Shown one piece after another: positions 1 to 10,445 of a stretch of 25,242 bases of DNA. Every line of letters starts with the position of its first letter. The first letter of the stretch is position 1. The position numbers were made by a program, and so were the translations under genes. The stretch is taken from the IMG/VR virus record IMGVR_UViG_3300027754_000403, positions 1 to 25,242 of that record; one strand, given 5' to 3'. The DNA is from a virus. A model generated the notes under the pieces. It was not told the origin of the DNA, did no database searches, and was given only the letters and a program-made list of their open reading frames with translations.

Positions 1-1
1 G

Positions 2-169
2 GAGTTCCGCCATCTACTCGGAACCGATGACGTTCAGGAGGGCATTACTGTTGTGCGTGATTTGAAACAACTCGCAGCAGTACGACTGGCTTACATCACG
101 CAACTCGAAACCGAGAACGACGCAATGAGAGCGGATCTGCTGCTGTGGAATGAGAAGGAGTCCAAATGA
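2..169 (+). CDS. Hypothetical protein, C-terminal part (5' truncated)
   Basis: This reading frame is open from the window edge to a TGA and encodes 55 residues of an incomplete protein. The visible part is charged and probably helical (TQLETENDAMRADLLLW), as in a short coiled coil. The stop overlaps the start of the next gene in an ATGA arrangement, so both belong to one rightward operon with translational coupling. I do not recognise a family and the N-terminus is missing, so no function is proposed. Confidence 0.6.
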   Translation, partial: EFRHLLGTDDVQEGITVVRDLKQLAAVRLAYITQLETENDAMRADLLLWNEKESK

Positions 170-366
170 AAGACAGCCCCGCATTCATCTACGTCCACGC
201 ATGGAACGGCATTGTCCGCGTAGAGAGTCTGGACACAGCCAAGCACATCGACGGCAATCCAGAATGGAAGCACGTTAGCACAGTGAATCCTCACGTTATT
301 CTGGAGAATATTCTGCGAGCGAAGGGTAAAGAGCGAAATCAGATCATCAAACACCTACTGACATGA
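166..366 (+). CDS. Small hypothetical protein, 66 aa
   Basis: The ATG overlaps the previous stop by four bases, and a purine-rich GAGAAGGAG lies 6 bases upstream, which supports this start. The protein is soluble, with no membrane segment or cysteine cluster. It starts MKDSPAFIYVHAWNGIVRVE, which suggests a short beta-rich segment, and ends in a basic helix (RAKGKERNQIIKHLL). Its stop overlaps the next start. No family is recognised. An antisense frame over the same bases has no ribosome binding site and was ignored. Confidence 0.7.
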   Translation: MKDSPAFIYVHAWNGIVRVESLDTAKHIDGNPEWKHVSTVNPHVILENILRAKGKERNQIIKHLLT

Positions 367-875
367 GCGTCCGAATCAAAATCGAAAACCAAACCGAAGT
401 CCCCGTCCTTGTTGCTCTTTTTGAGCAGCCCAAATGCAACGACCATCCTACTAGGAGCGCGGTCCTCAAACCCGGCGAGAGCTGCGACTGGGGCAGTGGC
501 TCCGTACCGCTTGGCAACTACCAGTGCTATGCTGTTATGAGCGGTGATGCATCATCCCATGACGAGTGGGTGTGGCACTTCCCCGGTATTGCAGAGGTTG
601 TCGCACCGCTGGAGCTAGGCTTCAAGTTGTGGCATGCAGGCGATCTTGATTGGGCAAATGTTAAAGCGATGAGCAGTGACGACTTGAACGCTACGTTTGG
701 ATCTGCCTACACATCAGCCAAATCATCTACGAAATCATGGAACGGAATGTCTTCCTGCATATTCCATATTCGCGGTGGCCCTTCATGGGTCGAAGAAACC
801 GAACAGGTGGGCATCTATCGACCAAAGACAGTGGCCTACAATGGCGTTCAGTCCACGCCGATGAAGAGCGAGTAG
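363..875 (+). CDS. Hypothetical protein, 170 aa, beta-rich
   Basis: The gene starts in an ATGA overlap with its predecessor. The first 80 residues are beta-like (MSVRIKIENQTEVPVLVALF, then KPGESCDWGSGSVPLGNYQC), resembling a small sandwich or barrel domain. The rest is rich in Trp and Ser (DEWVWHF, SKSWNGMSSCIFHIRGG). There is no signal peptide or membrane helix. It is probably cytoplasmic and co-expressed with the small early genes around it. The family is not recognised. Confidence 0.7.
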   Translation: MSVRIKIENQTEVPVLVALFEQPKCNDHPTRSAVLKPGESCDWGSGSVPLGNYQCYAVMSGDASSHDEWVWHFPGIAEVVAPLELGFKLWHAGDLDWANVKAMSSDDLNATFGSAYTSAKSSTKSWNGMSSCIFHIRGGPSWVEETEQVGIYRPKTVAYNGVQSTPMKSE

Positions 876-882
876 ATTGAAA

Positions 883-1125
883 ATGAGTCTACTGCAAGAA
901 TTAGGGTTGACGAAGGAGTCAATGGCGAAGATGTTGGGACCAGTTCCCGCCTTCAAAGCCCCTGATCCATTGATCTACCGGCGGTGGGAAGCTGTTCCAG
1001 TAAAGATCAGAGAATCGATTCTCAGGGATAACTCAACATTCACCTACAGGGAGTTGGCCAAGAAATACGGTATCTCGCATTCATGCGTATGGAACATAAA
1101 GAACAAACAACCAAACAAACAATAG
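883..1125 (+). CDS. Small helix-turn-helix protein, 80 aa
   Basis: The C-terminal half (IRESILRDNSTFTYRELAKK, then YGISHSCVWNIKNKQ) has the pattern of a helix-turn-helix: a charged first helix, the short turn YGIS, then a recognition helix ending in Lys/Asn residues. This suggests DNA binding, either as a regulator or as a small accessory protein. A TTG six bases upstream (877) is in frame, but ATG 883 is preferred. The gene begins 7 bases after the previous stop. The target site is unknown; the dyads at 6481-6528 are one possibility, with no direct evidence. Confidence 0.65.
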   Translation: MSLLQELGLTKESMAKMLGPVPAFKAPDPLIYRRWEAVPVKIRESILRDNSTFTYRELAKKYGISHSCVWNIKNKQPNKQ

Positions 1126-1265
1126 AGGAACTACAACGATGGAAACTGTTATGTCACGAATTGGCCGCATGCTTGGGATGCGGATGCACAACACAAAGCG
1201 ACCTGTGTGTCCAGTGCCACAAAGCATACAAACGGTATCGAGCGATCCAGATACCGTTGCAATAG
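1083..1265 (+). CDS. Possible small zinc-binding protein, 60 aa (overlaps neighbours in other frames)
   Basis: This frame encodes a compact cysteine cluster, CLGCGCTTQSDLCVQCHKAY, after a helical N-terminus (TIEELQRWKLLCHELA). It looks like a small zinc-binding knuckle. The frame overlaps the end of the 80-aa helix-turn-helix gene and the start of the gene beginning at 1139. Neither ATG 1083 nor ATG 1089 has a convincing ribosome binding site. It competes with the 5' part of the 1139 frame, which has AGAGGA at a good distance. If this one is real, the downstream gene may instead start at ATG 1313. Confidence 0.4.
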   Translation: MRMEHKEQTTKQTIEELQRWKLLCHELAACLGCGCTTQSDLCVQCHKAYKRYRAIQIPLQ

Positions 1266-1690
1266 ATAAAGTACCTAAACGCAAAACAAGAAAGCATCTC
1301 AAGTCAACATACATGAAAACCAGCGACTCAATAGATAAGGTAAACGCACTAAGAGCTGATGGACTCACATACAAGGGTATCGGTCATGTTATGAACATCT
1401 CAAAGCAACGGGTGTTCCAGATCATCGCCGCCGGCAAGAAGCGGGATGCCTCGAATAACAAATGGACCGCGGGTCTCAGCTCTCGTAACGCCAACCTGAT
1501 GGAGAAGCTTGGCATCAAAGACAAGGAGACCGCCATCCATGCAATCCATAACCGTGACATCGTACCGTTCAAGTGGCCGAACTTCGGTGTTCGATCCTAC
1601 CACGATCTGTGCTCGTGGCTTGGTACTCTACCCGCCGATCCCGGCTTAGGCCGGCACTGCCCCCATTGCGGCAAAACTTCCAAGCAATGA
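1139..1690 (+). CDS. Helix-turn-helix protein with RNAP alpha-CTD-like segment, 183 aa
   Basis: Residues about 66-95 (VNALRADGLTYKGIGHVMN, then ISKQRVFQII) have the form of a sigma-region-4-like helix-turn-helix. Residues about 113-163 (LSSRNANLMEKLGI ... FGVRSYHDLCSWL) match the pattern of the RNA polymerase alpha C-terminal domain, a helix-hairpin-helix fold (compare LSxRxxNxLxxxGI and NFGxKSLxEI). The tail has a CPHC motif that may bind zinc. The likely role is DNA-binding transcription control. The start is uncertain: ATG 1139 has AGAGGA 9 bases upstream, but the first 58 residues look poor in structure and ATG 1313 is an alternative (125 aa). The stop overlaps the next ATG. Confidence 0.65.
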   Translation: METVMSRIGRMLGMRMHNTKRPVCPVPQSIQTVSSDPDTVAIDKVPKRKTRKHLKSTYMKTSDSIDKVNALRADGLTYKGIGHVMNISKQRVFQIIAAGKKRDASNNKWTAGLSSRNANLMEKLGIKDKETAIHAIHNRDIVPFKWPNFGVRSYHDLCSWLGTLPADPGLGRHCPHCGKTSKQ

Positions 1691-1947
1691 GCCGTCACGC
1701 ATTCCCACTCGTCGAATCCATCAAGGTGGTCCATCTCTCAGATGGAAGAACCATCCGAGTGGTGCGTGATCGAACCGAAGAGAATCTAAAGACCAACTAC
1801 GGAGATGGTGATATCCACCTCACTTGCGTGTCCCAAGCCCATGATCCCATCGAGATGATCAAGACCTTGGCCCGCTTGGAGAGCGTTCGATCCGTAGAAC
1901 TGGTTGATTCAAAGGGCAATGGAATCGTAGTCCACAAACAAAAATGA
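1687..1947 (+). CDS. Small hypothetical protein, 86 aa
   Basis: The ATG at 1687 overlaps the stop of the regulator-like gene (ATGA), and this start is preferred over more distal in-frame starts that would lie inside that gene. The protein looks like an alpha/beta fold of short strands (SIKVVHLSDGRTIRVVRD and SVRSVELVDSKGNGIVVH) around a helix (DPIEMIKTLARLE). There are no cysteine motifs or membrane segments. It is coupled to the next gene by another ATGA overlap. The family is not recognised. Confidence 0.65.
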   Translation: MSRHAFPLVESIKVVHLSDGRTIRVVRDRTEENLKTNYGDGDIHLTCVSQAHDPIEMIKTLARLESVRSVELVDSKGNGIVVHKQK

Positions 1948-2189
1948 AAACGTCCTCAACACACGACCTCGTCAACGCGCTCAATATCCTTTCAGCCGAA
2001 CTAGATACCCAAGATGGAATCCCCAATGCGCTCTGTGCAGAAGCATCCACTCGTCTCCTTGAGCTGGTCCAGCTCACGAGCGACCTCACTACCCACATCG
2101 TATCCAACCCTGTGCATCATGGTAGATGTAACGCCAAGACCAAGGGTTCCTACTGCAACTGTATCTTGGCGCGCCTCATCACCCCATGA
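1944..2189 (+). CDS. Small hypothetical protein with Cys/His-rich C-terminus, 81 aa
   Basis: This gene starts in an ATGA overlap. The first 55 residues are predicted helical (HDLVNALNILSAELD, STRLLELVQLTSDLTTHIV). The tail, NPVHHGRCNAKTKGSYCNC, contains two His and three Cys in a short span and could bind a metal. It ends in an ATGA overlap with the next gene. No specific family is recognised. The unbroken chain of overlaps supports a real coding region. Confidence 0.6.
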   Translation: MKTSSTHDLVNALNILSAELDTQDGIPNALCAEASTRLLELVQLTSDLTTHIVSNPVHHGRCNAKTKGSYCNCILARLITP

Positions 2190-2446
2190 AGACCCCAAGG
2201 CAAGAGCAACCCTGGTACGAATCCCGCCTCTCAAATAACAAGAAACCCGGCCCCATAACCGAAGATGAACGAACCATCATCACCGATGAGAACCGCCGGC
2301 TCATTGAGCAGTCCGCTCAGATAATTGCTTGGGGAATCGCTAAAGGCTGGATCGCTTACCCCGAACCAATAGAACGTCGCATATGGAAAATCCCTCAGCT
2401 CTCCCACCCTCCCGGTTCGTCAATCGATCCAACTCTGGAGTCATAG
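2186..2446 (+). CDS. Small hypothetical protein, 86 aa
   Basis: This is a soluble charged protein. Its central helix, ENRRLIEQSAQIIAWGIAKG, follows an acidic and basic N-terminus (PGPITEDERTIITD). Its C-terminal 21 codons overlap the start of the next candidate gene in another frame, an unusually long overlap for this operon, so one of the two ends may be misassigned. No function is proposed. Confidence 0.6.
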   Translation: MKTPRQEQPWYESRLSNNKKPGPITEDERTIITDENRRLIEQSAQIIAWGIAKGWIAYPEPIERRIWKIPQLSHPPGSSIDPTLES

Positions 2447-2583
2447 TCACGGTCCTTCATGTTGGCCAATATCGGCTCGCAGAACTCAAAGCACCCGTCA
2501 TCATCTACCAGAGAGACAACAGGATTTATGTTCGCCTCACCTCGGAATTCCACACCAAGTTCAAACCCTATGAAGAAAGCTAA
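2383..2583 (+). CDS. Small hypothetical protein, 66 aa
   Basis: Residues 18-66 look like a small beta barrel (SNSGVIVTVLHVGQYRLAEL, APVIIYQRDNRIYVRLTSEF). The first 17 residues lie within the end of the preceding gene and are low in complexity, so translation may begin further in. The stop overlaps the next gene by 14 bases. The beta-rich core and the operon position support a real gene; its function is unknown. Confidence 0.55.
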   Translation: MENPSALPPSRFVNRSNSGVIVTVLHVGQYRLAELKAPVIIYQRDNRIYVRLTSEFHTKFKPYEES

Positions 2584-2695
2584 AGTCAAGCCCGCCGCCC
2601 CCTACGCCGCCAAGCCCAGCACTAAAAAGACCGGAACCTATTCCCCCAAAACTCAAGCCATCAAACGGTTGATGAAGATAGACAAAATGAAGTAG
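2570..2695 (+). CDS. Very small basic protein, 41 aa
   Basis: The ATG at 2570 lies inside the end of the previous gene, with GAAAGC-type purines nearby. The product is extremely basic (KKAKVKPAAPYAAKPSTKK, then KTQAIKRLMKIDKMK) with Ala/Pro linkers. Such a composition usually means nucleic-acid binding, but that is inference from composition only. It sits just upstream of the primase-helicase gene. A longer in-frame start at 2459 would overlap the previous gene fully and is not favoured. Confidence 0.55.
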   Translation: MKKAKVKPAAPYAAKPSTKKTGTYSPKTQAIKRLMKIDKMK

Positions 2696-2727
2696 CCCCC
2701 AACGATCAGTCCCAAACAAACAACGAT

Positions 2728-4524
2728 ATGACACCGCACCAACGTGCGGCCCTTTGGCTTTCCAAGGTGCCGCCAGCCGTCTCTGGCCAGTCCGGACACT
2801 CAACTACCTACACTGCCGCCGTCGGCCTCGTACACGGCTTCCAGCTCTCGGAGGGCGATGCTCTGGCCCTGCTCTCTAACTGGAATCAATACTGCCAACC
2901 ACCTTGGTCCGATCGCGAACTGACTCACAAACTCCGCGAGGCCGCTTCCAAGTCTCACTCCAAACCAGCCGGCCATCTCCTTCAGTCAGGGGTCTCCCCC
3001 TCAACCGCCCCCTTCGATATCACCAAGGTATCATTCAAGAGGCCGGTGACGGCCTCACCAACCACACCGCCCGATCCTCAAGCCAGCGAGTTCAAGCGGT
3101 TCCTTCAAGCCGCCTTCGCTGCCACCGAGGTGGTCTGCATCTGTGACGCGGTCGAAGATGGTAGGCCAGTCACTGCTGGATCATTCATCCCCGTTGAAGA
3201 TTGGATCGCCCGATTCGATGATCCGGCATCCCGCATCCTATCACCGGAACGCGAGGGGATCTTCGTTCGCATCAATCCTTTCCGGCCCAACCTCTACAGC
3301 GGCTCCGACAACGATGTCAGCGCGTATCGCCATGTCCTGGTGGAGTTCGATGACAAGCCCAAGGCTGAACAGGAGAAGCTATTCCGCGATTCGGGCCTCC
3401 CGATCACCGTACTCATCGATAGCGGTGGTAAGTCCATCCATGCCTGGGTCCGCGTAGATGCGCCCAATCGCAAGGAGTGGGACATCCGCCGGGATATCAT
3501 CTACAGCAGCATCCCGGGCATCGATGCCAAGAACAAGAACCCCTCGCGCTACTCCCGGCTCCCGGGCGCATGGCGTAGCCCTACCTCCCAACAGAAGCTG
3601 TTGGCCACTAACCTCGGCTCCGCTTCATGGGAGGATTACCTCACCTCCCGGGAAACCGATGATGATCAATCCACGGTGGTCTCGATCAAGGATCTCATAT
3701 CCTTCGATTCATCCAACGATCCGGACAACCTGATCGGCCAACGCTGGCTTACCCGCGGCTCCTCCATGATCGTCAGCGGTGGTACCGGGATCGGGAAGTC
3801 CAGCCTGATGATGCAGATCGTCATCCAGTGGGCACTCGGCAAGGACTTCTTCGGTATCGCCCCGGTGAAGCCCCTCAAGATCGGAGTCATCCAAGCCGAG
3901 AACGACAAGGGCGACCTCGCCGAGGCATTCCAAGGCGTAGGGTTCGGTCTCAACCTTAGCGGGGGCGACATGAAGATGCTCCAGCAACAGCTAGAGTTTA
4001 GGACCGAGGCCGTCCGTACCGGCGACCAGTTCCTCGCCTACGCCCGCCGCTTCATCCACAAATCCAAGCTCGATGTCATCGTGGCCGATCCTTTGTTCAG
4101 TTACTTCGGCGGTGATCTCAGCGACCAGGGCGAGGTCAGCGTGTTCTTGCGTAACAAACTCCAGCCCATCCTTCAAGAAACCAAGGTCGCTTGGATCTGG
4201 ATGCATCACATCTCCAAAGCCCAGCGCAAGGACGGTGAACCCATGACCACTATGGAACTCGCTCACGCCGGCTTCGGATCCTCGGAGCTTGCCAATTGGG
4301 CGCGTGAGATCGCGGTTCTGGCAGAGGTAGGCCAGTTCAAGCCTCGACGCTTCCAGCTAGCCTTCTGCAAGCGTGGAGGGCGGCTTCCCAAACCCATCAT
4401 CAACCTCCAGCACGGTACCGATCGAATCAAGTGGGAGGAATACAACCCGCTAGTCATCACCGGTGCCCAGCTCAAGGAGAAGAAACCGTTCAACAACAAG
4501 GCCAAGAGGAAAGACAGTATATGA
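2728..4524 (+). CDS. Primase-helicase fusion: PriCT-like, AEP primase-like and RecA-like ATPase
   Basis: This is likely the phage replication primase-helicase. Residues 1-85 (AALWLSKVPPAVSGQSGHST, LLSNWNQYCQPPWSDRELTH) resemble a PriCT-type segment. Residues about 130-300 resemble an archaeo-eukaryotic primase: VEFDDK at 205-210 supplies acidic metal ligands, SGGKSIHAW at 232-240 supplies the catalytic His, and NPSRYSRLPGAWR follows. Residues about 320-560 are a RecA-like ATPase: Walker A GGTGIGKSS at 351-359, Walker B VIVADP with D454, then a WMHHISK sensor-like segment. The protein would make RNA/DNA primers and unwind or load at the origin. The next gene overlaps its stop. No DNA polymerase is visible in the window. 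Confidence 0.88.
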   Translation: MTPHQRAALWLSKVPPAVSGQSGHSTTYTAAVGLVHGFQLSEGDALALLSNWNQYCQPPWSDRELTHKLREAASKSHSKPAGHLLQSGVSPSTAPFDITKVSFKRPVTASPTTPPDPQASEFKRFLQAAFAATEVVCICDAVEDGRPVTAGSFIPVEDWIARFDDPASRILSPEREGIFVRINPFRPNLYSGSDNDVSAYRHVLVEFDDKPKAEQEKLFRDSGLPITVLIDSGGKSIHAWVRVDAPNRKEWDIRRDIIYSSIPGIDAKNKNPSRYSRLPGAWRSPTSQQKLLATNLGSASWEDYLTSRETDDDQSTVVSIKDLISFDSSNDPDNLIGQRWLTRGSSMIVSGGTGIGKSSLMMQIVIQWALGKDFFGIAPVKPLKIGVIQAENDKGDLAEAFQGVGFGLNLSGGDMKMLQQQLEFRTEAVRTGDQFLAYARRFIHKSKLDVIVADPLFSYFGGDLSDQGEVSVFLRNKLQPILQETKVAWIWMHHISKAQRKDGEPMTTMELAHAGFGSSELANWAREIAVLAEVGQFKPRRFQLAFCKRGGRLPKPIINLQHGTDRIKWEEYNPLVITGAQLKEKKPFNNKAKRKDSI

Positions 4525-4844
4525 AATACCGCGATCAGTTCGGGAAGATGCCGCCGCTTAAGCATGATAAGATCATTGCTTCCAGCGAGGTGGTTATGCA
4601 CATAGCCAGTGGGATATCATGCGATATCGAGCGGGCCAATAAGTTGTTCAATGAGCTTCGCAAGCGTCGGATCATCGTCTTCGATAGGCTCGACCGGACA
4701 TGGCACGGCATCGACAACCGCTCCATCCGCCACACCGATTCGGATCGTATCCGGATGCTGGAGATCCGGCTGGAGACCCTCGAAAACAAGCACCGGAAGC
4801 TCCTCGCCGCCTACCGCGCCCACATCGACCTAATTCCCAACTAG
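4521..4844 (+). CDS. Small protein, winged-helix-like with C-terminal coiled coil, 107 aa
   Basis: The ATG overlaps the primase-helicase stop (ATGA), with GAGGAAAG 8 bases upstream. Residues 15-65 (ASSEVVMHIASGISCDIERA, KLFNELRKRRIIVFDRL) have the spacing of a small winged-helix domain. Residues 75-105 form a heptad-like helix (RIRMLEIRLETLENKHRKLL). Its position next to the helicase suggests a replication accessory or regulatory role, by context only. It is the last gene of the rightward early operon; inverted repeats follow its stop. Confidence 0.65.
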   Translation: MKYRDQFGKMPPLKHDKIIASSEVVMHIASGISCDIERANKLFNELRKRRIIVFDRLDRTWHGIDNRSIRHTDSDRIRMLEIRLETLENKHRKLLAAYRAHIDLIPN

Positions 4845-4852
4845 GGGTAGTC

Positions 4853-4913
4853 CCTAGGGGGTAGTCTATCGGCCTATGTGGCCCCCCTTTCTAAGAATTT
4901 ACTCCCCCCTAGG
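4853..4913. repeat. Long inverted repeat with internal hairpin
   Basis: Arm CCTAGGGGGTAGT (4853-4865) is complementary to ACTCCCCCCTAGG (4901-4913) at 12 of 13 positions. Inside it lies a second stem, GGCC-TATGT-GGCC (4871-4883). A further CCCCT/AGGGG stem follows at 4928-4943. The structure begins 9 bases after the stop of the last rightward gene. There is no long T-run, so it is not a textbook intrinsic terminator. Confidence 0.6.
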
Positions 4914-4946
4914 AACGCCCCCACTAACCCCTCTCAATAGGGGTAT

Positions 4947-4989
4947 GGTTGCTCCCCCTTAATTGCTTTGAAGGCAATGGGGGGCAACC
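4947..4989. repeat. Long stem-loop, possible bidirectional terminator or structured RNA
   Basis: GGTTGC-T-CCCCC (4947-4958) pairs with GGGGGGCAACC (4979-4989) around an inner ATTGC/GCAAT stem with a 7-base loop. The outer stem has 11 pairs with one bulged T. Neither strand has a U-tract after the stem, so a Rho-independent terminator is not certain. Confidence 0.55.
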
Positions 4990-5136
4990 ACAGTAAACTA
5001 AACTCAACTACGAAATCGCTCATTCGCTTGGACCCCCTATTTGGATTTTCTATTTTCTTCTCCTCGCCGGGGTCAGGGTACGGGGTGGTGGTTGGATGGA
5101 TGGAAGCGAATGCCCCGCGCTGGAGTCTGGAGGGGT

Positions 5137-5763
5137 CTAGGAGAGCGTTTGATGCTCGGATGGAGTGTAGGGAGCGGAACCCCATTGATCGGCCATGGCG
5201 CGGGCGATGCCGGGATAGGTCTTGGAACGCTCCTTCCAGCGGGTTGGACTGGGACCGAGTTTGTTCTGGCCACTAGGGGTTTGATTGGCCCACCTACCGG
5301 ATGGCGGTAGCGGCAGGATGTCGGTGGGAACCAGCGGTGGAAGGTTCTTGAGCCAGAGACAGGTGCGCTTGCTCGCGTCATCTCCGAACTGATACGGCTG
5401 GATTATCTGAGTGGGTTTGCATATACGAGTGTTGATAGCACCTATTGGGTTCTCTATTGCTATACAGGGGACACCACTATTCATTAACAGATGGACGAAT
5501 GCCAGTGCTTCCTCGGTCAGCTTGGGGTCGCGAAGCCCCCGGGTAGTCCAGTGCATGCCGCTTCCACAGAGGTAGGTGCATGGCGGAAACGCGATCAACA
5601 TATCCCAGTGCTGCTTGAGAAGATCCCGCACATCACCGCGGTAATGCTGGCCCACCGTGTCCGACTCCTCGAAATCGCAGCTCCACGCATCCCAGCCTCG
5701 GGCCGCGAACTCATCGCGAACCCGGCCACTGTACTCACACGCAACAAGAACTCGGGGTTTCAT
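5137..5763 (-). CDS. Compact DNA cytosine-C5 methyltransferase-like protein, 208 aa
   Basis: The N-terminal SAM-binding pattern (RVLVACEYSGRVRDEF), the acidic CDF (29-31) and GDV (43-45) motifs, the catalytic FPPCTYLCGSG with Cys62, and an ENP motif (AIENPIGAINT) match the cytosine-C5 methyltransferase fold. The C-terminal SKTYPGIARAMADQW is typical of the phage version of this family. At 208 residues it is much shorter than restriction-type enzymes, with no obvious target-recognition domain. Likely roles are protection of phage DNA or base modification. Start ATG 5763 has a strong GGAGGAGG site and overlaps the upstream gene stop; an upstream in-frame start at 5802 is less likely. Confidence 0.8.
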   Translation of the reverse strand: MKPRVLVACEYSGRVRDEFAARGWDAWSCDFEESDTVGQHYRGDVRDLLKQHWDMLIAFPPCTYLCGSGMHWTTRGLRDPKLTEEALAFVHLLMNSGVPCIAIENPIGAINTRICKPTQIIQPYQFGDDASKRTCLWLKNLPPLVPTDILPLPPSGRWANQTPSGQNKLGPSPTRWKERSKTYPGIARAMADQWGSAPYTPSEHQTLS

Positions 5764-5921
5764 TGAACCTCCTCCGCTACCTCCACACTCAGGAACTCCC
5801 ACCCGTAGCGATGAGCATCCTCCTCAGCAGCCTCGCGGGCCTCGCTGATCGGTTCATGGTAGCTGAAGTCCTTCTCGATCTCTCCATCCGGCTTGCGGAA
5901 CGTGGCGACAATGCTGATCAC
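5760..5921 (-). CDS. Small hypothetical protein, 53 aa, GTG start
   Basis: The GTG start at 5921 is chosen because GGGAGGT lies 6 bases upstream and the GTG overlaps the previous stop (GTGA). A longer ATG frame (5954) would lack that site. The sequence reads as a two-strand, one-helix fold: SIVATFRKPDGEIEKDFSYH, then EAREAAEEDAHRYGWEFLSV. The family is not recognised. The stop overlaps the methyltransferase ATG, so the two are translationally coupled. Confidence 0.65.
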   Translation of the reverse strand: MISIVATFRKPDGEIEKDFSYHEPISEAREAAEEDAHRYGWEFLSVEVAEEVQ

Positions 5922-6220
5922 AGCGCACCTCCCTTGGAGGCCACTGCCTTCCATCCCGTGTACCGGGCATCGCAGTACACCAAGACATCGCAGACCGAAA
6001 CACCGGGCACCCGCACCACAACACCGAACGGACGCTTCTGGGTCCGAACCGCCACCATCCCAGCAGTCTCCGCAGACTTCCGCAGGTACTCGTCATACCC
6101 ACTCCAGTCCTCGTACTCACGCTCGTCCATCCACCTAGACTTGGCCTGCTGCACAGAACCGTTGATCTTGCTCGCGTAATCGCTGATCAGCGCGATCAGC
6201 TCTTCCTTGGTTTGTTTCAT
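5918..6220 (-). CDS. Hypothetical protein, 100 aa, first gene of leftward unit 1
   Basis: The N-terminus is helical (KQTKEELIALISDYASKING, then SRWMDEREYEDWSGYDEYLR). The C-terminal half looks beta-rich (AETAGMVAVRTQKRPFGVVV, VCDVLVYCDARYTGWKAV). No cysteine cluster or membrane segment is seen. It is the first gene of a three-gene leftward operon that ends with the methyltransferase. The region upstream of its ATG has a weak ribosome binding site but a candidate promoter at 6263-6292. Function unknown. Confidence 0.65.
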   Translation of the reverse strand: MKQTKEELIALISDYASKINGSVQQAKSRWMDEREYEDWSGYDEYLRKSAETAGMVAVRTQKRPFGVVVRVPGVSVCDVLVYCDARYTGWKAVASKGGAL

Positions 6221-6262
6221 ATCGTTCGTTGATTTACCACCGCTCCATGCGGCGATGGGGTG

Positions 6263-6292
6263 AACCTACCGCACCATGATCCTCCTCGTCAA
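6263..6292 (-). promoter_or_regulatory. Candidate sigma70-like promoter for leftward unit 1
   Basis: Read on the minus strand, TTGACG (6292-6287) is 18 bases from TAGGTT (6268-6263), followed 42 bases later by ATG 6220. The -35 hexamer matches consensus at 5 of 6 positions; the -10 is weak. It is plausible because leftward unit 2 ends at a terminator just upstream, so unit 1 needs its own promoter. Confidence 0.35.
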
Positions 6293-6347
6293 GGGGGAAT
6301 CTTTCATGGCATGGAGAAATCGCTGTACCCCGATTCCCGATTCTGGG

Positions 6348-6367
6348 ATTCCGAATTCCGAATTCCG
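6348..6367. repeat. Short tandem repeat, unit ATTCCGA x3
   Basis: ATTCCGA is repeated almost three times in tandem, after two looser copies (GATTCCCGATTC) immediately upstream. It resembles short intergenic spacer repeats of the GAATTC type that occur in many bacterial genomes. A role as an iteron or spacer is unknown. Confidence 0.6.
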
Positions 6368-6459
6368 TATGGCGTATGGAGAATCTGGAATACCGCACCA
6401 TGAGGTTCCGGGGTTGGGGGGCGCACATGGGCTTCGCGTGGGCGGCACATGAGGTCCGC

Positions 6460-6479
6460 GGGCGGGCGACGGGGGGGGG
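6460..6479 (+). other. Potential G-quadruplex run
   Basis: On the + strand, GGGCGGGCGAC is followed by nine Gs. Four GGG tracts with loops of 1-4 bases can be drawn. Another G-rich block (GGGGTTGGGGGG) lies at 6410-6421. The formation potential is read from sequence only. Confidence 0.45.
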
Positions 6480-6480
6480 C

Positions 6481-6528
6481 GGACACGGGATGTCCAATGC
6501 CAATAGAGGGGTCGGACATTCGATGTCC
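6481..6528. promoter_or_regulatory. Two dyad-symmetric sites GGACA-N5-TGTCC, candidate operators
   Basis: GGACA-CGGGA-TGTCC (6481-6495) and GGACA-TTCGA-TGTCC (6514-6528; the arms extend to GGACAT/ATGTCC) have identical arms and spacing. Their starts are 33 bp apart, about three helical turns. This is typical of cooperative binding by a dimeric regulator. A related dyad, GGGTGT-CC-ACACCC, is at 6640-6653. They lie upstream of leftward unit 1. Confidence 0.5.
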
Positions 6529-6663
6529 TAGGGGGGATCCTGGTGGGCTAGTGTTAAATCGAAAGTGACCAGTGACAAGGAAGGAAGGAACCACACACAA
6601 GGGGATCGATTGGCCAACTAGGAAGGAAAGCGGCAAGCGGGGTGTCCACACCCTCGGGGCAAC

Positions 6664-6692
6664 AAAAAGCCCGTAGGGGTGAACCTACGGGG
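6664..6692 (-). terminator. Intrinsic terminator of leftward unit 2
   Basis: On the minus strand, stem CCCGTAGG with CCTACGGG (8 perfect pairs, 6-base loop) is followed at once by CTTTTTG. This is a textbook Rho-independent terminator, placed 20 bases downstream of the stop of the last leftward gene of unit 2. Confidence 0.8.
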
Positions 6693-6711
6693 CGGGGTGA
6701 GTGGATTGGGA

Positions 6712-6807
6712 TTATCTACCGTTTCCTGCGAGGGCCGAGAGGACTAAGAGCAAAGTAAACAGCAGGCAAAGTCCGAGGTAACCTAGGACGCGAAGGAGGG
6801 GTTTCAA
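6712..6807 (-). CDS. Tiny membrane peptide, 31 aa, TTG start
   Basis: The TTG start at 6807 overlaps the TGA of the preceding gene (TTGA) and is preceded by GGGAGGA at a good distance. The 31 residues read MKPLLRVLGYLGLCLLFTLL followed by LVLSALAGNGR: a short basic N-terminus and one hydrophobic helix. It is therefore probably a single-span inner-membrane peptide. It is the last gene of unit 2, just before the terminator. Overlap, ribosome binding site and composition together support it despite its length. Holin-like, toxin-like or superinfection functions are possible; none is shown. Confidence 0.6.
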   Translation of the reverse strand: MKPLLRVLGYLGLCLLFTLLLVLSALAGNGR

Positions 6808-7067
6808 AGCTTCCTCCCATCGATGACGTCCACCCGATACTTCATACCGGGCTTTGTGACCAACTCACGCACACCGTCCCAGCATGGCGCACACATCGCC
6901 CGCACGGTGGCGCATTTTCCCGTCTCGTTTTCCCACACGGAAAATTCAACGGCGCGACGATAGTCCATAAGGTTTTCACAGCGTGGGCAAAAAATCGCCC
7001 GCCCCACGGATGCTTTCAGGCTTTGCTTGTCGGAGCTGCGTTTAAAGGTTTCTATAATGTCTCTCAT
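6804..7067 (-). CDS. Small zinc-ribbon-like protein, 87 aa
   Basis: The CPRC motif (AIFCPRCENLMDYRRAVEF) and a CAPC motif (RAMCAPCWDGVREL) make a four-cysteine site separated by about 30 residues of beta-like sequence, the layout of a zinc ribbon. The protein would bind zinc and perhaps nucleic acid or protein. It starts 4 bases after the stop of the preceding gene with no clear Shine-Dalgarno. Its stop overlaps the tiny membrane peptide start. No family name is given. Confidence 0.7.
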   Translation of the reverse strand: MRDIIETFKRSSDKQSLKASVGRAIFCPRCENLMDYRRAVEFSVWENETGKCATVRAMCAPCWDGVRELVTKPGMKYRVDVIDGRKL

Positions 7068-7071
7068 AAGC

Positions 7072-7392
7072 TTAAAAATTACGGATGATCACGCCGTTTT
7101 CCCACACCCGAACGCAGTCCGTGCGGTTCATGAGCCATTCAATTGGGTGCTCATCTTTGGAGTCCACACCGTCAATGAAACCGTAATCCGTTGCCGCGGC
7201 AAGGGCCGTGGGATACTCGGCCCACTCACAGCACAGGGCTATGGGGTCAAGGGTGAGTTCCGTGTCCGTGTCATCCTCCACCCTTTCAAGGTGCTCGAAG
7301 AGTGCCCGCAGGGCGTGGTAGCTAAACTGCGATTCCCGCCCGCAGGCACGGAAAGCTTCAACGAATGAGTTCTGTGTGATGATGGTTTTCAT
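7072..7392 (-). CDS. Conserved phage-type hypothetical protein, 106 aa
   Basis: The ATG at 7392 begins MKTIITQNSFVEAFRACGRE, a start seen in small proteins common in phages and plasmids (pattern FxxAFxxxGRxxQFSYxxLxALFxHLE, then acidic residues and an ALCCEWAEY motif). The function of that family is not known to me. A longer in-frame start at 7596 would overlap the preceding gene by 140 bases and is rejected. The 64-base gap upstream has a GGGCA-TCAAT-TGCCC stem (7405-7419) close to the start, which could affect translation. Confidence 0.75.
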   Translation of the reverse strand: MKTIITQNSFVEAFRACGRESQFSYHALRALFEHLERVEDDTDTELTLDPIALCCEWAEYPTALAAATDYGFIDGVDSKDEHPIEWLMNRTDCVRVWENGVIIRNF

Positions 7393-7456
7393 GATGGTTT
7401 GTGAGGGCATCAATTGCCCGTGCAACCTACCGTTTCCGATAGGCTGACCGGAGAAT

Positions 7457-8149
7457 TCAGGCTTCAATGAAATGGACTGAACCGTTTCCGTGGGGTGGAA
7501 TGTAAACGGACTCGAGACCATTACGGTTCCCGGCGCATAGTTGACACACGGAACATGGGGTACCGATGCGATCGCTGGCGCAAAGGGATTCACCAACGGA
7601 AGCCTCGGAACCCACGCGAAAGGTTGACCAGCCCATTGACCGAGCGATGACTAGTTGCGCCACCGAGTCAACGCTGGCCATCAAAAGCGAACGCCACGCT
7701 TGGAGTGATGGCTTGCGCCATTGGTGTGTGTAGCCGGTGTGACCGGAAGCCACACCAGCGATCGCAAGCGCAAGGGGAAGGGGGATCCATGTGGGATCGC
7801 CGTAGGCTCCGAAGCGGACTTTCCTACCAACGAAGCATTCAAGGGATCGAAGCAAGGGGTAGTTGCCCGCTTTCCATGCCCTCCAGATTCCCTGCGGAGC
7901 CTGCCCGGGATTCACATAGCATGTCCTTTCCACACCGTGTTTGCCGTCAACCTCGTGACCGCGATGCATGCAGTTGCCGCAGATAAGCCGATCCAAGCCC
8001 GTGCGGATTGCTTCGGTAGGGCTCACAGAACGGACTAGAATCCAGATCTGGATCATGTCGCCGGTTTTCCGGTTGTCGCTGGGGTGATTGAAGCCCGTGG
8101 CGATGATAACGCGGTGCTGGTCTTCGTGGAGGATGAAACCGTTGTTCAT
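7457..8149 (-). CDS. Conserved phage hypothetical protein with cysteine clusters, 230 aa
   Basis: This resembles a conserved protein found in many phages, with KTGDMIQIWILVRSVSPTEA, CGNCMHRG, CYVNPGQAPQGIWRAWKAG, RKVRFGAYGDPTWIPLPLA and SGHTGYTHQW in that order. Cysteines occur in two groups, CGNC (about 59-62) and CSVCQLC (about 200-206), which may bind zinc or an iron-sulfur cluster. Biochemical function is unknown to me. The ATG at 8149 has GGGGGTG 7 bases upstream and overlaps the preceding stop. It is the largest gene of leftward unit 2. Confidence 0.8.
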   Translation of the reverse strand: MNNGFILHEDQHRVIIATGFNHPSDNRKTGDMIQIWILVRSVSPTEAIRTGLDRLICGNCMHRGHEVDGKHGVERTCYVNPGQAPQGIWRAWKAGNYPLLRSLECFVGRKVRFGAYGDPTWIPLPLALAIAGVASGHTGYTHQWRKPSLQAWRSLLMASVDSVAQLVIARSMGWSTFRVGSEASVGESLCASDRIGTPCSVCQLCAGNRNGLESVYIPPHGNGSVHFIEA

Positions 8150-8259
8150 AGAACACCCCCGACGATGAATTCGGCGACGATGAGCGCAAATACTGAGATT
8201 ACGAGTGCCGCGCCGATTAAGAGCGCGAGGGCGGTTAGGAAGGGTTTTAGGGATTTCAT
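8146..8259 (-). CDS. Small single-span membrane protein, 37 aa, first gene of leftward unit 2
   Basis: Starting at ATG 8259 the product is MKSLKPFLTALALLIGAALV followed by ISVFALIVAEFIVGGVL: a basic N-terminus and a long hydrophobic segment, one membrane span without a cytoplasmic domain. An in-frame start at 8337 would add 26 residues that lie in the repeat-containing control region and are not favoured. Its stop overlaps the next start. It is likely an inner-membrane phage peptide; function unknown. Confidence 0.6.
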   Translation of the reverse strand: MKSLKPFLTALALLIGAALVISVFALIVAEFIVGGVL

Positions 8260-8349
8260 GATTTGAGAGGGAACCAATGATCGGTTCACGGGAGGAGAGT
8301 GCAACGGTTCACGAGAGGAGTCAACGCTGGAATACAAGAGAATGAGAAA
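8260..8349. promoter_or_regulatory. Divergent control region with 16-bp direct repeats
   Basis: This region separates leftward unit 2 from the rightward packaging genes. CGGTTCACGGGAGGAG (8282-8297) and CGGTTCACGAGAGGAG (8305-8320) differ at one base and are 23 bp apart. GAACC-N7-GGTTC (8271-8287) forms a dyad overlapping the first copy. GGTTCAC half-sites also occur on the other strand at 6261 and 6680. No clear -10/-35 pair was found on either strand. Confidence 0.45.
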
Positions 8350-8787
8350 ATGCTATCGGGGGTGATGAAAGCGAAAGGGAGCGGTGACCTGGTGAAGGTG
8401 AGGATGAGGGCAAAGCCTGAGAGGGGCACTAAAATGGTCCTGTCACCCGATACAAAAAACAAGGCGATGGAAGCGGCCAGGTACGGCATGCCGCTTGAAC
8501 GCATCGCGATGCTGTGCGGGTTTTCGTCAAGCGAGACACAATGGTCCAGGTGGATTAACGCCAACCCGGCGTTCAGGAAGGAGCTTGATCAAGCGAGGGC
8601 TGAGGGTGAGTTGCTGCTGCAAAGGAAGATCATGAGCGGTGAAGCCAATTGGCAAGCGGCGGGGTGGATGCTCGAACGCACCCGCGGTTACGTAGCAAGG
8701 GCTTCACTCGAACATACAGGTAAAGGTGGCAAAGAGTTATCGGTTAGTGGCAATCTCCTTGGTGCCTTTGGTGGGCAATCTAAATAG
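8350..8787 (+). CDS. Putative small terminase subunit, 145 aa
   Basis: Immediately upstream of the large terminase gene, this protein has a helix-turn-helix-like N-terminal part (NKAMEAARYGMPLERIAMLC, then GFSSSETQWSRWI), a charged helical middle (ELDQARAEGELLLQRKIMSG) and a C-terminal tail with HTGKGGKELSVSG. This is the usual layout of small terminases, which bind the packaging site and activate the large subunit. ATG 8350 is chosen; ATG 8365 or GTG 8299 (2 bases after GGAGGAGA) are alternatives, so the N-terminus is uncertain. A spacer of 122 bases follows. Confidence 0.7.
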   Translation: MLSGVMKAKGSGDLVKVRMRAKPERGTKMVLSPDTKNKAMEAARYGMPLERIAMLCGFSSSETQWSRWINANPAFRKELDQARAEGELLLQRKIMSGEANWQAAGWMLERTRGYVARASLEHTGKGGKELSVSGNLLGAFGGQSK

Positions 8788-8909
8788 GATAGGGAATAGG
8801 AATAGCGTAGTAGGATAGCGGCTATGGTAATAGGACGACGGGGGCGGGGGACCACCCAGCAGGGGGTGGGTGATACCTTATACCCCCCATCCGTACCCAA
8901 CCCAATTTT
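8788..8909. other. Short spacer with ATAGGA-type repeats and a small hairpin
   Basis: Imperfect repeats of ATAGGA/ATAGCG cover 8786-8835. A CCACCC/GGGTGG stem (8852-8869) follows. No ribosome binding site precedes the ATG at 8910. A packaging (cos/pac) role is possible by position only. Confidence 0.35.
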
Positions 8910-10445
8910 ATGAGTGTCAAGCAAATTAAACGGAAGAAATCCCCTTCACTAGGAATGGGTTCGCATATCCCTGCATGGAAGCAGCGTAAGCTCCTTGAGG
9001 AGGCACAACATTTGGCCAACTTCCCTAAGATGATGCTAGGGCTTCGCGATGTGTACCCGTGGCAGGAGAAGGTGCTGGGAGCGTTGAACGAGAAGCATTC
9101 CAAGGTAGCACTCAAGGCCGCGAATGGATCTGGAAAGACGAGCATGGTAGCCGCATCTGCCGTTGTCTGGCACATGCTCCGCTGGCCTGGGAGCCTTGTG
9201 GTATGTACGGCGGGTGTGTACCGACAGGTGGCCGATGCTCTGTGGCCGCATCTTCGGAAGATGATCAATGGATTGGGAGGCGAGGAGAATGGGTTCTCGA
9301 TCAAGGACGGTGAGATCCGATATGTGTACCCGAAGAAGGTAGATGGCCAGGAGTTAGTGAGTAGGTGCATAGGGTTCAGCGCGAGCAATCCTGAGAAGGC
9401 GGAGGGCTGGCATGTGCAGGGGCCGAGCAATGATTTGCTGTATATTGTGGATGAGGCGAAGGCGGTACCGGACGGGATATTCCAGTCGATGGAACGGTGC
9501 CAGCCAACGCGGACTTTGTTGATGAGTAGCCCCGGTGGCTCCTCCGGCTATTTCTACGATGTGTTCCGGCGCAATGACGGGAAGTGGAATACCTTTACGG
9601 TGACGGCGTTTGATTGTCCGCATATCCGGAAGGAGTGGATTGATGATCAGTTCGCCAGATGGGGCGAGGGGCATCCGCTTGTGAGATCGATGATCTATGC
9701 GGAGTTCATGGAGGACGACGGGAGTTTGACGGCGGTGAAGACGATCGATTGGCAGAGGGTGGTAAGTGGCCCACCTAAAGAGGATACGGAGGGTCAGCCG
9801 TTGACCGCGGGTTGTGACTTCTCAGCGGGCGGCGATGAGAGTGTCCTCGTCATTCGCCAGGGTAATACCGTTAAGGGGTTGGTGCGGTGGCGGGACAAGG
9901 ACACGATGGCCAGTGTGGGTAGGTTCATAGCGGAGTTCAGGAAGTGGAATCTGAAGGCTGCGGATATCTATGCGGATGTGGGCGGTATGGGGGTTGTGAT
10001 GTGCGATGCCCTCCGGTCTGAGGGTTGGGATGTGCGGCGGGTGAACTTTGGGGAGCGGGCCATTCGGGATGATCAGTTCGTGAATAGGGCGGCGGAGATG
10101 TGGATCGAGTTCGGGCGTATGGTGGAGGAAGCGAAGGTGAATCTGGGGCCGGTGGGAACGGACGAGATTCTATTGCAGCAGTTTGTGAGTAGGAAGGTGC
10201 GGACTAATGGTAAGGGGAAGCTGACTCTGGAGGGTAAGGACGAGCTACGATCCCGCGGGGTGAATAGTCCGGATCGGGCGGATGCGATGGTACTGGCGTT
10301 TTGCGGTGGTGGCGGGAAGCGGATGGATGAGTACCTGAAAGCGTTGGGCGAGGATGGAAGGAGCTTGCTTGAAAGGATGGAGGATGAGATAGGTCCGGTG
10401 GAGGAAACCGGGTCTTCGCTTGCTGGATGCGAGGTTGGGGGATAG
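8910..10445 (+). CDS. terL: Terminase large subunit (packaging ATPase and nuclease), 511 aa
   Basis: This is the packaging motor. Walker A AANGSGKT (residues 70-77) and Walker B LLYIVDEAK (D181, E182) form the ATPase, followed by the coupling-type motif LLMSSPGGS. The C-terminal RNase H-like nuclease has conserved acidic residues: CDFSAGGDE (D303), DIYADVGG (D352, D356) and SPDRADAM (D455, D458). Its length is typical. Codons end in G far more often than in neighbouring modules. ATG 8910 is preceded by an A/T-rich AATTTT and no Shine-Dalgarno sequence. It is followed by the portal gene. Confidence 0.93.
   Translation: MSVKQIKRKKSPSLGMGSHIPAWKQRKLLEEAQHLANFPKMMLGLRDVYPWQEKVLGALNEKHSKVALKAANGSGKTSMVAASAVVWHMLRWPGSLVVCTAGVYRQVADALWPHLRKMINGLGGEENGFSIKDGEIRYVYPKKVDGQELVSRCIGFSASNPEKAEGWHVQGPSNDLLYIVDEAKAVPDGIFQSMERCQPTRTLLMSSPGGSSGYFYDVFRRNDGKWNTFTVTAFDCPHIRKEWIDDQFARWGEGHPLVRSMIYAEFMEDDGSLTAVKTIDWQRVVSGPPKEDTEGQPLTAGCDFSAGGDESVLVIRQGNTVKGLVRWRDKDTMASVGRFIAEFRKWNLKAADIYADVGGMGVVMCDALRSEGWDVRRVNFGERAIRDDQFVNRAAEMWIEFGRMVEEAKVNLGPVGTDEILLQQFVSRKVRTNGKGKLTLEGKDELRSRGVNSPDRADAMVLAFCGGGGKRMDEYLKALGEDGRSLLERMEDEIGPVEETGSSLAGCEVGG

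What the first reader, a model, noticed from the sequence alone, without database searches (positions are those of the whole stretch)
1139..1690. Possible phage regulator fusing a sigma-type helix-turn-helix to an RNAP alpha-CTD-like segment
The sequence has a helix-turn-helix (ALRADGLTYKGIGHVMNISK) followed by a segment that follows the alpha-CTD/helix-hairpin-helix pattern (LSSRNANLMEKLGI ... FGVRSYHDLCSWL), then a CPHC motif. The alpha CTD binds UP elements and activators in host RNA polymerase. A phage copy next to a DNA-binding domain could redirect host polymerase. No phage RNA polymerase is seen in the window.
Basis: partly seen in the sequence, partly recalled or inferred. Interest (0 to 1): 0.58.

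Follow-up and report, generated by a model that had tools for sequence, protein, structure and literature searches.

The report
Phage protein borrowing polymerase's DNA-gripping domain
A family of lake and freshwater viruses carries a tiny protein that joins an ordinary DNA-reading domain to a domain related to the DNA-gripping tail of the bacterial RNA polymerase alpha subunit; it is probably a DNA-binding regulator, but whether it steers host transcription or helps viral replication is untested.

Summary
The gene is 1313-1690 (125 aa), not 1139-1690: the first 58 codons overlap a different, conserved zinc-type ORF and show no coding constraint in this frame. The protein has a sigma-region-4/HTH_23-type HTH (residues 3-49), a helix-hairpin-helix domain (51-104) and a CPHC tail. 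The C-terminal domain is related to the RNA polymerase alpha CTD. A family profile aligns with alpha-CTD profiles (hhalign score 35-37; best column shuffle 17). PF03118 is the most frequent Pfam match, though below its cut-off. Alpha-CTDs rank first in PDB searches by sequence and by fold, though with non-significant E-values. The alpha-CTD DNA-contact residues R265, G296 and S299 are kept in 19 of 19 diverse members, whereas the sigma-contact residues D259/E261 are not. That favours a bipartite DNA-binding protein over a polymerase mimic. The gene lies in early/replication gene clusters of two phage lineages, probably of Verrucomicrobiota. Bacteria of that phylum have sigma4 + alpha-CTD fusions, and other phages carry alpha-CTD domains, so this is a new variant of a known kind. 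'Redirects host polymerase' is possible but untested; a replication role is a serious rival.

The parts
1313..1690 (+). HTH + alpha-CTD-like protein, 125 aa (true start ATG 1313; stop TGA 1688-1690 overlaps the next ATG)
   Evidence: 38 of 38 relatives start here; dN/dS 0.20-0.32; AF2 mean pLDDT 82.7
1319..1459 (+). helix-turn-helix, protein residues 3-49 (helices 3-15, 20-27, 31-49)
   Evidence: secondary structure; Sigma70_r4 and HTH_23 match 11 of 11 members of A4; VIA Z up to 8.9 to HTH folds over residues 1-50, including sigma region 4
1463..1624 (+). alpha-CTD-like helix-hairpin-helix domain, protein residues 51-104
   Evidence: hhalign to alpha-CTD profiles, AF2 pLDDT 88.8, Foldseek and hmmsearch ranking, PF03118 sub-threshold in 3 of 19 members
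1484..1486 (+). codon R58, aligned to E. coli alpha Arg265
   Evidence: R in 19 of 19 members of A5
1583..1597 (+). codons F91-G92-V93-R94-S95 (hairpin), aligned to E. coli alpha L295-G296-K297-K298-S299
   Evidence: F, G and S in 19 of 19; basic at the K298 position in 15 of 19
1658..1669 (+). CPHC tail (protein residues 116-119), possible metal-binding half site
   Evidence: C.HC in 115 of 121 near-full-length family rows; lost in L181/L182/L184/L185/L188
1083..1265 (+). overlapping upstream ORF with Cys pairs (LGCGCTTQ..LCVQC), the real coding frame across 1139-1265
   Evidence: conserved frame in 15 of 15 sequences printed, constraint
877..1125 (+). upstream small HTH protein in the same gene cluster
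   Evidence: HTH_23 sub-threshold; syntenic in subfamily 1 loci
1687..2583 (+). small downstream genes of the same cluster (1687-1947, 1944-2189, 2186-2446, 2383-2583), largely start/stop-overlapping
   Evidence: synteny
2728..4524 (+). primase/helicase-type AAA gene ending the conserved cluster
   Evidence: PHROG 2597 DNA primase 1.6e-49, AAA_25 1.4e-15

Best explanation
The gene encodes a small two-domain, sequence-specific DNA-binding protein. An N-terminal sigma4/HTH_23-type helix-turn-helix would read the major groove (inferred). A C-terminal domain descended from the bacterial RNA polymerase alpha CTD would grip the adjacent minor groove and backbone through the residues that alpha CTD uses on UP elements (homology and residue conservation shown by computation; binding inferred). 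The protein is made from an early/replication gene cluster and most likely acts as a transcription regulator of phage (or host) promoters, occupying an UP/-35-like composite site (inferred). Direct contact with host polymerase is possible but not indicated by the conserved residues. Fold and kinship are well supported; the regulatory role is inference.
For: Alpha-CTD kinship: hhalign of 19 diverse C-domains vs 11 bacterial alpha-CTDs scores 35.4 (Prob 90.7, E 1.2e-6; best of 300 column shuffles 17.2, reversed 11.5). Against 27 alpha-CTDs it scores 37.0 (best of 200 shuffles 16.7). As single sequences, E. coli alpha-CTD 19.9 beats LigA 16.0, S13 11.3, RuvA 10.9 and UvrC 7.8, and the rpoA frame is first of 123 E. 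coli ORFs, though only narrowly (16.82 vs 16.76). Ruegeria phage V16_23, which has PF03118 over its cut-off, scores 33.8. PDB hmmsearch: best of 177,635 sequences is H. pylori alpha-CTD (E 0.48). Foldseek: top 3 of 350,542 chains are alpha-CTDs. PF03118 is the commonest Pfam match among the 19 C-domains (3 of 19, best E 0.051), and in whole phage records the only hits, in 2 of 12, fall in this gene. DNA-contact positions: R265, G296, S299 19/19; K298 basic 15/19; E302 acidic 18/19. These are DNA-contact residues per PMC11434276 (R265, N268; passages), the rest recalled. All 16 alpha-CTDs sampled from the phylum of a Verrucomicrobiota MAG have the NFG hairpin that most of the phage family has. 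HTH. Clusters.
Against: No single window-sequence search finds PF03118, and the Pfam matches are below the cut-off. Foldseek E-values are 4-5, and VIA Z 5.8 is tied with PolX/Hjm HhH domains (5.2, 4.9). N268 is kept in only 4 of 19. No target site was found: upstream-region k-mers gave nothing specific and no sigma70-type promoter was seen in 1-9000. The neighbours are as much replication as regulation genes.
Confidence: 0.55

Rival explanations
1. Replication or recombination accessory protein: the two DNA-binding domains recognise the phage origin or coat replication intermediates and load the primase/primosomal proteins; transcription is not its business.
For: Subfamily 1 lies in a conserved cluster that ends in a primase/helicase. 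In the subfamily 2 records read (L255, L319) it lies between a phrog_862-type protein and a 3'-5' exonuclease-like gene, near a Holliday resolvase, methyltransferase and primosomal protein in L255. HhH domains are common in repair and replication proteins (PolX, Hjm, Rad51 rows).
Against: The domain's nearest profile and fold relatives are transcription alpha-CTDs. Early phage regulators also lie in such clusters (recalled).
Confidence: 0.25
2. True polymerase recruiter or mimic: the alpha-CTD-like domain stands in for host alpha CTD at phage promoters, contacting sigma or beta and raising initiation.
For: Alpha-CTD kinship; in E. coli, alpha-CTD and sigma4 lie side by side on UP/-35 DNA (PDB 3n97 title; contacts recalled). 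Bacterial proteins of the likely host phylum fuse sigma4 to alpha-CTD (L462, L463) or a whole sigma factor to alpha-CTD (L464).
Against: Sigma-contact positions D259/E261 are T/G/A/N and G/P; K271 is not kept.
Confidence: 0.15
3. Only a generic helix-hairpin-helix domain, convergent with or very distant from alpha-CTD, next to an HTH.
For: VIA Z-scores of alpha-CTD and PolX HhH are tied; all single-sequence statistics are weak.
Against: Ranking and profile scores favour alpha-CTD over LigA, S13, RuvA and UvrC; the LSxRxxxxLxxxxI start and NFGxKSxxEI hairpin match alpha-CTD along 47 columns.
Confidence: 0.05

Closest known systems
RNA polymerase alpha subunit C-terminal domain (PF03118), as in E. 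coli RpoA
   Same: 47-column profile alignment, hairpin NFGxRS/KS, R265/G296/S299 equivalents invariant
   Different: No alpha NTD; N268 and the D259/E261/K271 surfaces are not kept; three-residue insertion before the hairpin; fused to an HTH and a CPHC tail
   Same: Combine Sigma70_r4 and RNA_pol_A_CTD, both over the Pfam cut-offs; the HTH matches the family HTH at hhalign score 27-32 in L462/L463
   Different: 350-417 codon open frames; in L462/L463 the order is alpha-CTD first; L464 is a whole sigma factor; the C-domain match to L463 is poor (10.9)
Phage-borne alpha-CTD proteins: Ruegeria phage vB_RpoS-V16 gp23, Bacillus phage Goe8 c00050 ('RNA polymerase subunit alpha'), Microbacterium phage Mazun gp26
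   Same: Phage proteins with a lone alpha-CTD (PF03118 over cut-off in all three); V16 gp23 is the nearest single sequence (33.8)
   Different: No HTH matched in them by Pfam; the RefSeq copy of V16 gp23 is named pyrophosphatase
BREX type-2 PglW
   Same: An alpha-CTD-like domain followed by winged-HTH modules in a phage-bacteria conflict protein (PMC12839542, passages)
   Different: 1400-1600 residue multi-domain protein, bacterial defence
Sigma-70 region 4 / HTH_23 (PHROG 686 'HTH DNA binding protein')
   Same: HTH of residues 3-49
   Different: No sigma regions 2 or 3 found (for region 2; region 3 not searched in the record)

Membership tests
RNA polymerase alpha CTD domain family (PF03118) | Score over the curated Pfam cut-off (23.8 bits) | tested here: not met
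   Window: no match; best member 13.8 bits
RNA polymerase alpha CTD domain family (PF03118) | Profile-profile homology over the domain | tested here: met
   Score 35.4-37.0, shuffles up to 17.2
RNA polymerase alpha CTD domain family (PF03118) | Two-HhH alpha-CTD fold | tested here: inconclusive
   Top Foldseek rows are alpha-CTDs (TM 0.51-0.56) but E 4-5; VIA Z 5.8 tied with other HhH
RNA polymerase alpha CTD domain family (PF03118) | DNA-contact residues R265, N268, G296, K298, S299, E302 | tested here: inconclusive
   R, G, S 19/19; basic at 298 15/19; acidic at 302 18/19; N at 268 only 4/19
RNA polymerase alpha subunit (RpoA) | Alpha NTD (assembly domain) | tested here: not met
   125-aa protein; residues 1-52 are an HTH
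Sigma-70 factor | Region 2 (core and -10 recognition) | tested here: not met
   No Sigma70_r2 in the record; controls ring in 11 of 14
Sigma region 4-like HTH | Sigma70_r4 over cut-off | tested here: inconclusive
   Window 18 bits vs 24.1; member L250 28.1 bits, over
UP-element binding protein | Binds A/T-rich minor groove | not testable with these tools
   needs EMSA/footprint
RNAP-recruiting activator | Contacts host RNAP | not testable with these tools
   Sigma-contact positions not kept; interaction assay needed
Zinc-binding protein (CPHC tail) | Four metal ligands per site | tested here: inconclusive
   One C.HC pair only; kept in 115 of 121 rows, lost in some members

The most novel reading that the evidence does not exclude
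A phage-made miniature of the polymerase's upstream promoter grip: one 125-aa polypeptide carries a sigma4-like reader and an alpha-CTD-derived minor-groove clamp in cis. It would seize -35/UP-type sites independently of the polymerase, so as to exclude host alpha-CTD/sigma4 from host promoters or to pre-mark phage promoters for it. It would be the DNA-side counterpart of T4 Alt/ModA, which modify alpha Arg265 (PMC2988021, passages).
Probability: 0.2. Interest if true: 0.65.

Novelty: new variant of a known kind. Interest (0 to 1): 0.42.

Why it matters
Alpha-CTD is a hub of bacterial promoter control and a known phage target (T4 Alt/ModA, PMC2988021 passages; phiKMV-like Rac, PMC7552054, start of the abstract in the listing). 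A widespread phage family that instead encodes its own alpha-CTD-derived domain in cis with a sigma4-type HTH offers a small, testable system for how the two promoter-upstream contacts combine. It also gives an entry to early gene control in phages of (probably) Verrucomicrobiota, and it is not covered by Pfam, NCBIfam or PHROGs as a whole protein.

Tried and rejected
PF03118 and PDB searches with the single window protein found no alpha-CTD. Full-length fold searches were filled by HTH matches, so the C-domain was predicted alone; no alpha-CTD match to the C-domain appears in the list. BFVD gave only weak rows; one, at rank 29, is named 'RNA polymerase, alpha subunit, C-terminal' from an uncultured phage.

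Relatives in bacterial genomes: none with A2; one with A7, a 4-kb contig in a Verrucomicrobiota MAG with the subfamily 2 gene order, so probably phage DNA. In 145 genomes of that phylum the whole-protein profile matched 7: that contig, and six matches confined to the HTH region (query 3-60 at most).

Plasmid matches are a Tn3-type recombinase; the annotated gene covers only part of the match. Not pursued.

Operator search upstream of the terminase gene: no specific motif. No whole-record repeats pointed to a site.

Paper searches that found no description of a phage HTH + alpha-CTD fusion: (open-licence PMC papers only; titles and abstract starts read, passages of four papers). One reference of interest on HARE-HTH domains was not held.

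Rows dropped: of the 22 clusters, the C-domain alignment A5 left out two truncated members (L194, L281), a spurious second ORF of L113 (a primase frame carrying a copy of the gene's 3' end) and L031 (near the window). It used L078 for L083 and the window for the identical L001, and added L033. Only the best 80 of 115, 187 and 261 relatives were kept by the tool, so counts are not of the whole family. The Pfam membership figure is 3 of 19, the best among many weak matches.

Full report
What is there. The window is a 25,242-base virus record with terminase large (PHROG 2, 4.6e-34), portal and primase genes and a terminase small subunit. The terminase's nearest relatives among named phages are Akkermansia phages (31-36% identity). 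The finding's ORF is real, but its first 58 codons are not part of the gene. All 38 close relatives share the protein from the Met at 1313. The stretch 1140-1262 is constrained in the frame of the overlapping ORF 1083-1265, whose cysteine-rich sequence is kept in all 15 sequences printed. It is not constrained in the finding's frame. From 1313 the gene is under purifying selection (dN/dS 0.20-0.32 against seven relatives). In those pairs the HTH half often changes faster than the C-terminal half.

The family. Five rounds of searching in IMG/VR gave 38, 75, 80 of 115, 80 of 187 and 80 of 261 loci. Among the loci then held there were 124 domain rows, of which 121 were near full length, with 84 distinct C-terminal sequences. 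Two subfamilies are seen. Subfamily 1, which holds the window, has the conserved order small HTH gene, Zn-type ORF, this gene, small genes, primase. Subfamily 2 (about 30-36% identical to the window protein) lies, in the two loci read in full (L255, L319), between a phrog_862-type protein and a 3'-5' exonuclease-like gene; L255 also has a Holliday resolvase, a methyltransferase and a primosomal protein nearby. One member lies on a contig of a Verrucomicrobiota MAG with the same order. Together with the terminase relatives this suggests, but does not show, Verrucomicrobiota hosts.

The HTH. AF2 (mean pLDDT 82.7) gives helices 3-15, 20-27 and 31-49. Sigma70_r4 and HTH_23 match 11 of 11 diverse members. 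Structural neighbours of residues 1-50 include sigma region 4, LsrR, DesR and others with Z 6.7-8.9, so 'sigma-type' is fair but not exclusive.

The alpha-CTD-like domain. The C-domain predicted alone has pLDDT 88.8 and pTM 0.75. Evidence that it is related to alpha-CTD and not just any HhH: (a) profile-profile score 35.4 against 11 bacterial alpha-CTDs and 37.0 against 27, with the best column shuffles at 17.2 of 300 and 16.7 of 200; (b) single-sequence controls: alpha-CTD 19.9, LigA 16.0, S13 11.3, RuvA 10.9, UvrC 7.8, with the rpoA frame first among 123 E. coli ORFs but only narrowly (16.82 vs 16.76); (c) the Ruegeria phage V16 gp23 domain, which passes the PF03118 cut-off, scores 33.8 and links the two; (d) PF03118 is the commonest Pfam match among 19 C-domains, 3 of 19, best E 0.051, all below the cut-off; (e) the best sequence in the whole PDB is H. 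pylori alpha-CTD, E 0.48; (f) the three best Foldseek chains of 350,542 are alpha-CTDs, though with E 4-5. Against: VIA-align gives alpha-CTD 5.8 and PolX HhH 5.2, which is a tie. Two other phage alpha-CTD proteins, Goe8 and Mazun, score only 19.3 and 21.4.

What the residues say. On the alignment, positions equal to E. coli R265, G296 and S299 are invariant in 19 of 19. Position 298 is basic in 15 and 302 acidic in 18, but N268 is N in only 4. R265 and N268 are named as DNA-contacting and R265 as critical in PMC11434276 (passages); the roles of 296-302 are recalled. Positions equal to D259 and E261 (sigma contact, recalled) are T/G/A/N and G/P, and K271 is never K. All 16 alpha-CTDs sampled from the MAG's phylum have an NFG hairpin, whereas 10 of 11 others have NLG; the phage family has F at that place in 19 of 19 and N before it in 11 of 19. 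This is compatible with capture from, or adaptation to, such a host, but rests on a single residue.

How it most likely works. Shown by computation: two domains, their kinship, selection, gene context. Inferred: the HTH reads a site, the alpha-CTD-like clamp holds the adjoining minor groove, and the protein regulates early or middle transcription. The replication rival is serious because both contexts are replication-rich. The recruiter rival is weakened, not excluded, by the loss of sigma-contact positions. No target site was found.

Known kinds. Alpha-CTD domains in phage proteins are already in the records (Goe8, Mazun, V16), and one BFVD row carries the name. In 79 genomes of the MAG's phylum, 78 have a PF03118 match over the cut-off, and several have extra PF03118 proteins. 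Three of these extras were read: two are alpha-CTD + sigma4 proteins and one is a sigma factor with a C-terminal alpha-CTD. BREX PglW has an alpha-CTD-like domain before winged HTHs (PMC12839542, passages). The combination itself is therefore not new; the compact HTH-first phage family with a CPHC tail is a new variant. No paper describing it was found in the searches named under Tried and rejected.

Noticed in passing
window 1083-1265: Conserved overlapping small ORF with cysteine pairs (LGCGCTTQ..LCVQC), probably a zinc-type protein, out of frame with the ORF of the finding; it matches no Pfam family and only weak unknown PHROGs.
   Followed up: partly
   Followed up: partly
G075:C8:71434-72126: Three PF03118 matches in tandem in one 1221-codon open frame.
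   Followed up: no
L113 1840-3750: Primase-type frame that runs at its end into a second copy of the 3' end of the HTH/alpha-CTD gene; recombination or assembly chimera.
   Followed up: no
window 1-9000: No sigma70-type promoter match where 5.1 (sd 2.1) are expected from shuffles; the host may use other promoter sequences.
   Followed up: no
Ruegeria phage vB_RpoS-V16 gp23 (L337 3932-4798): Alpha-CTD at the N-terminus of a 288-aa protein whose RefSeq copy is annotated as pyrophosphatase.
   Followed up: partly
window 5137-5802 (- strand): DNA methyltransferase-like gene (PHROG 757, 5.8e-63).
   Followed up: no
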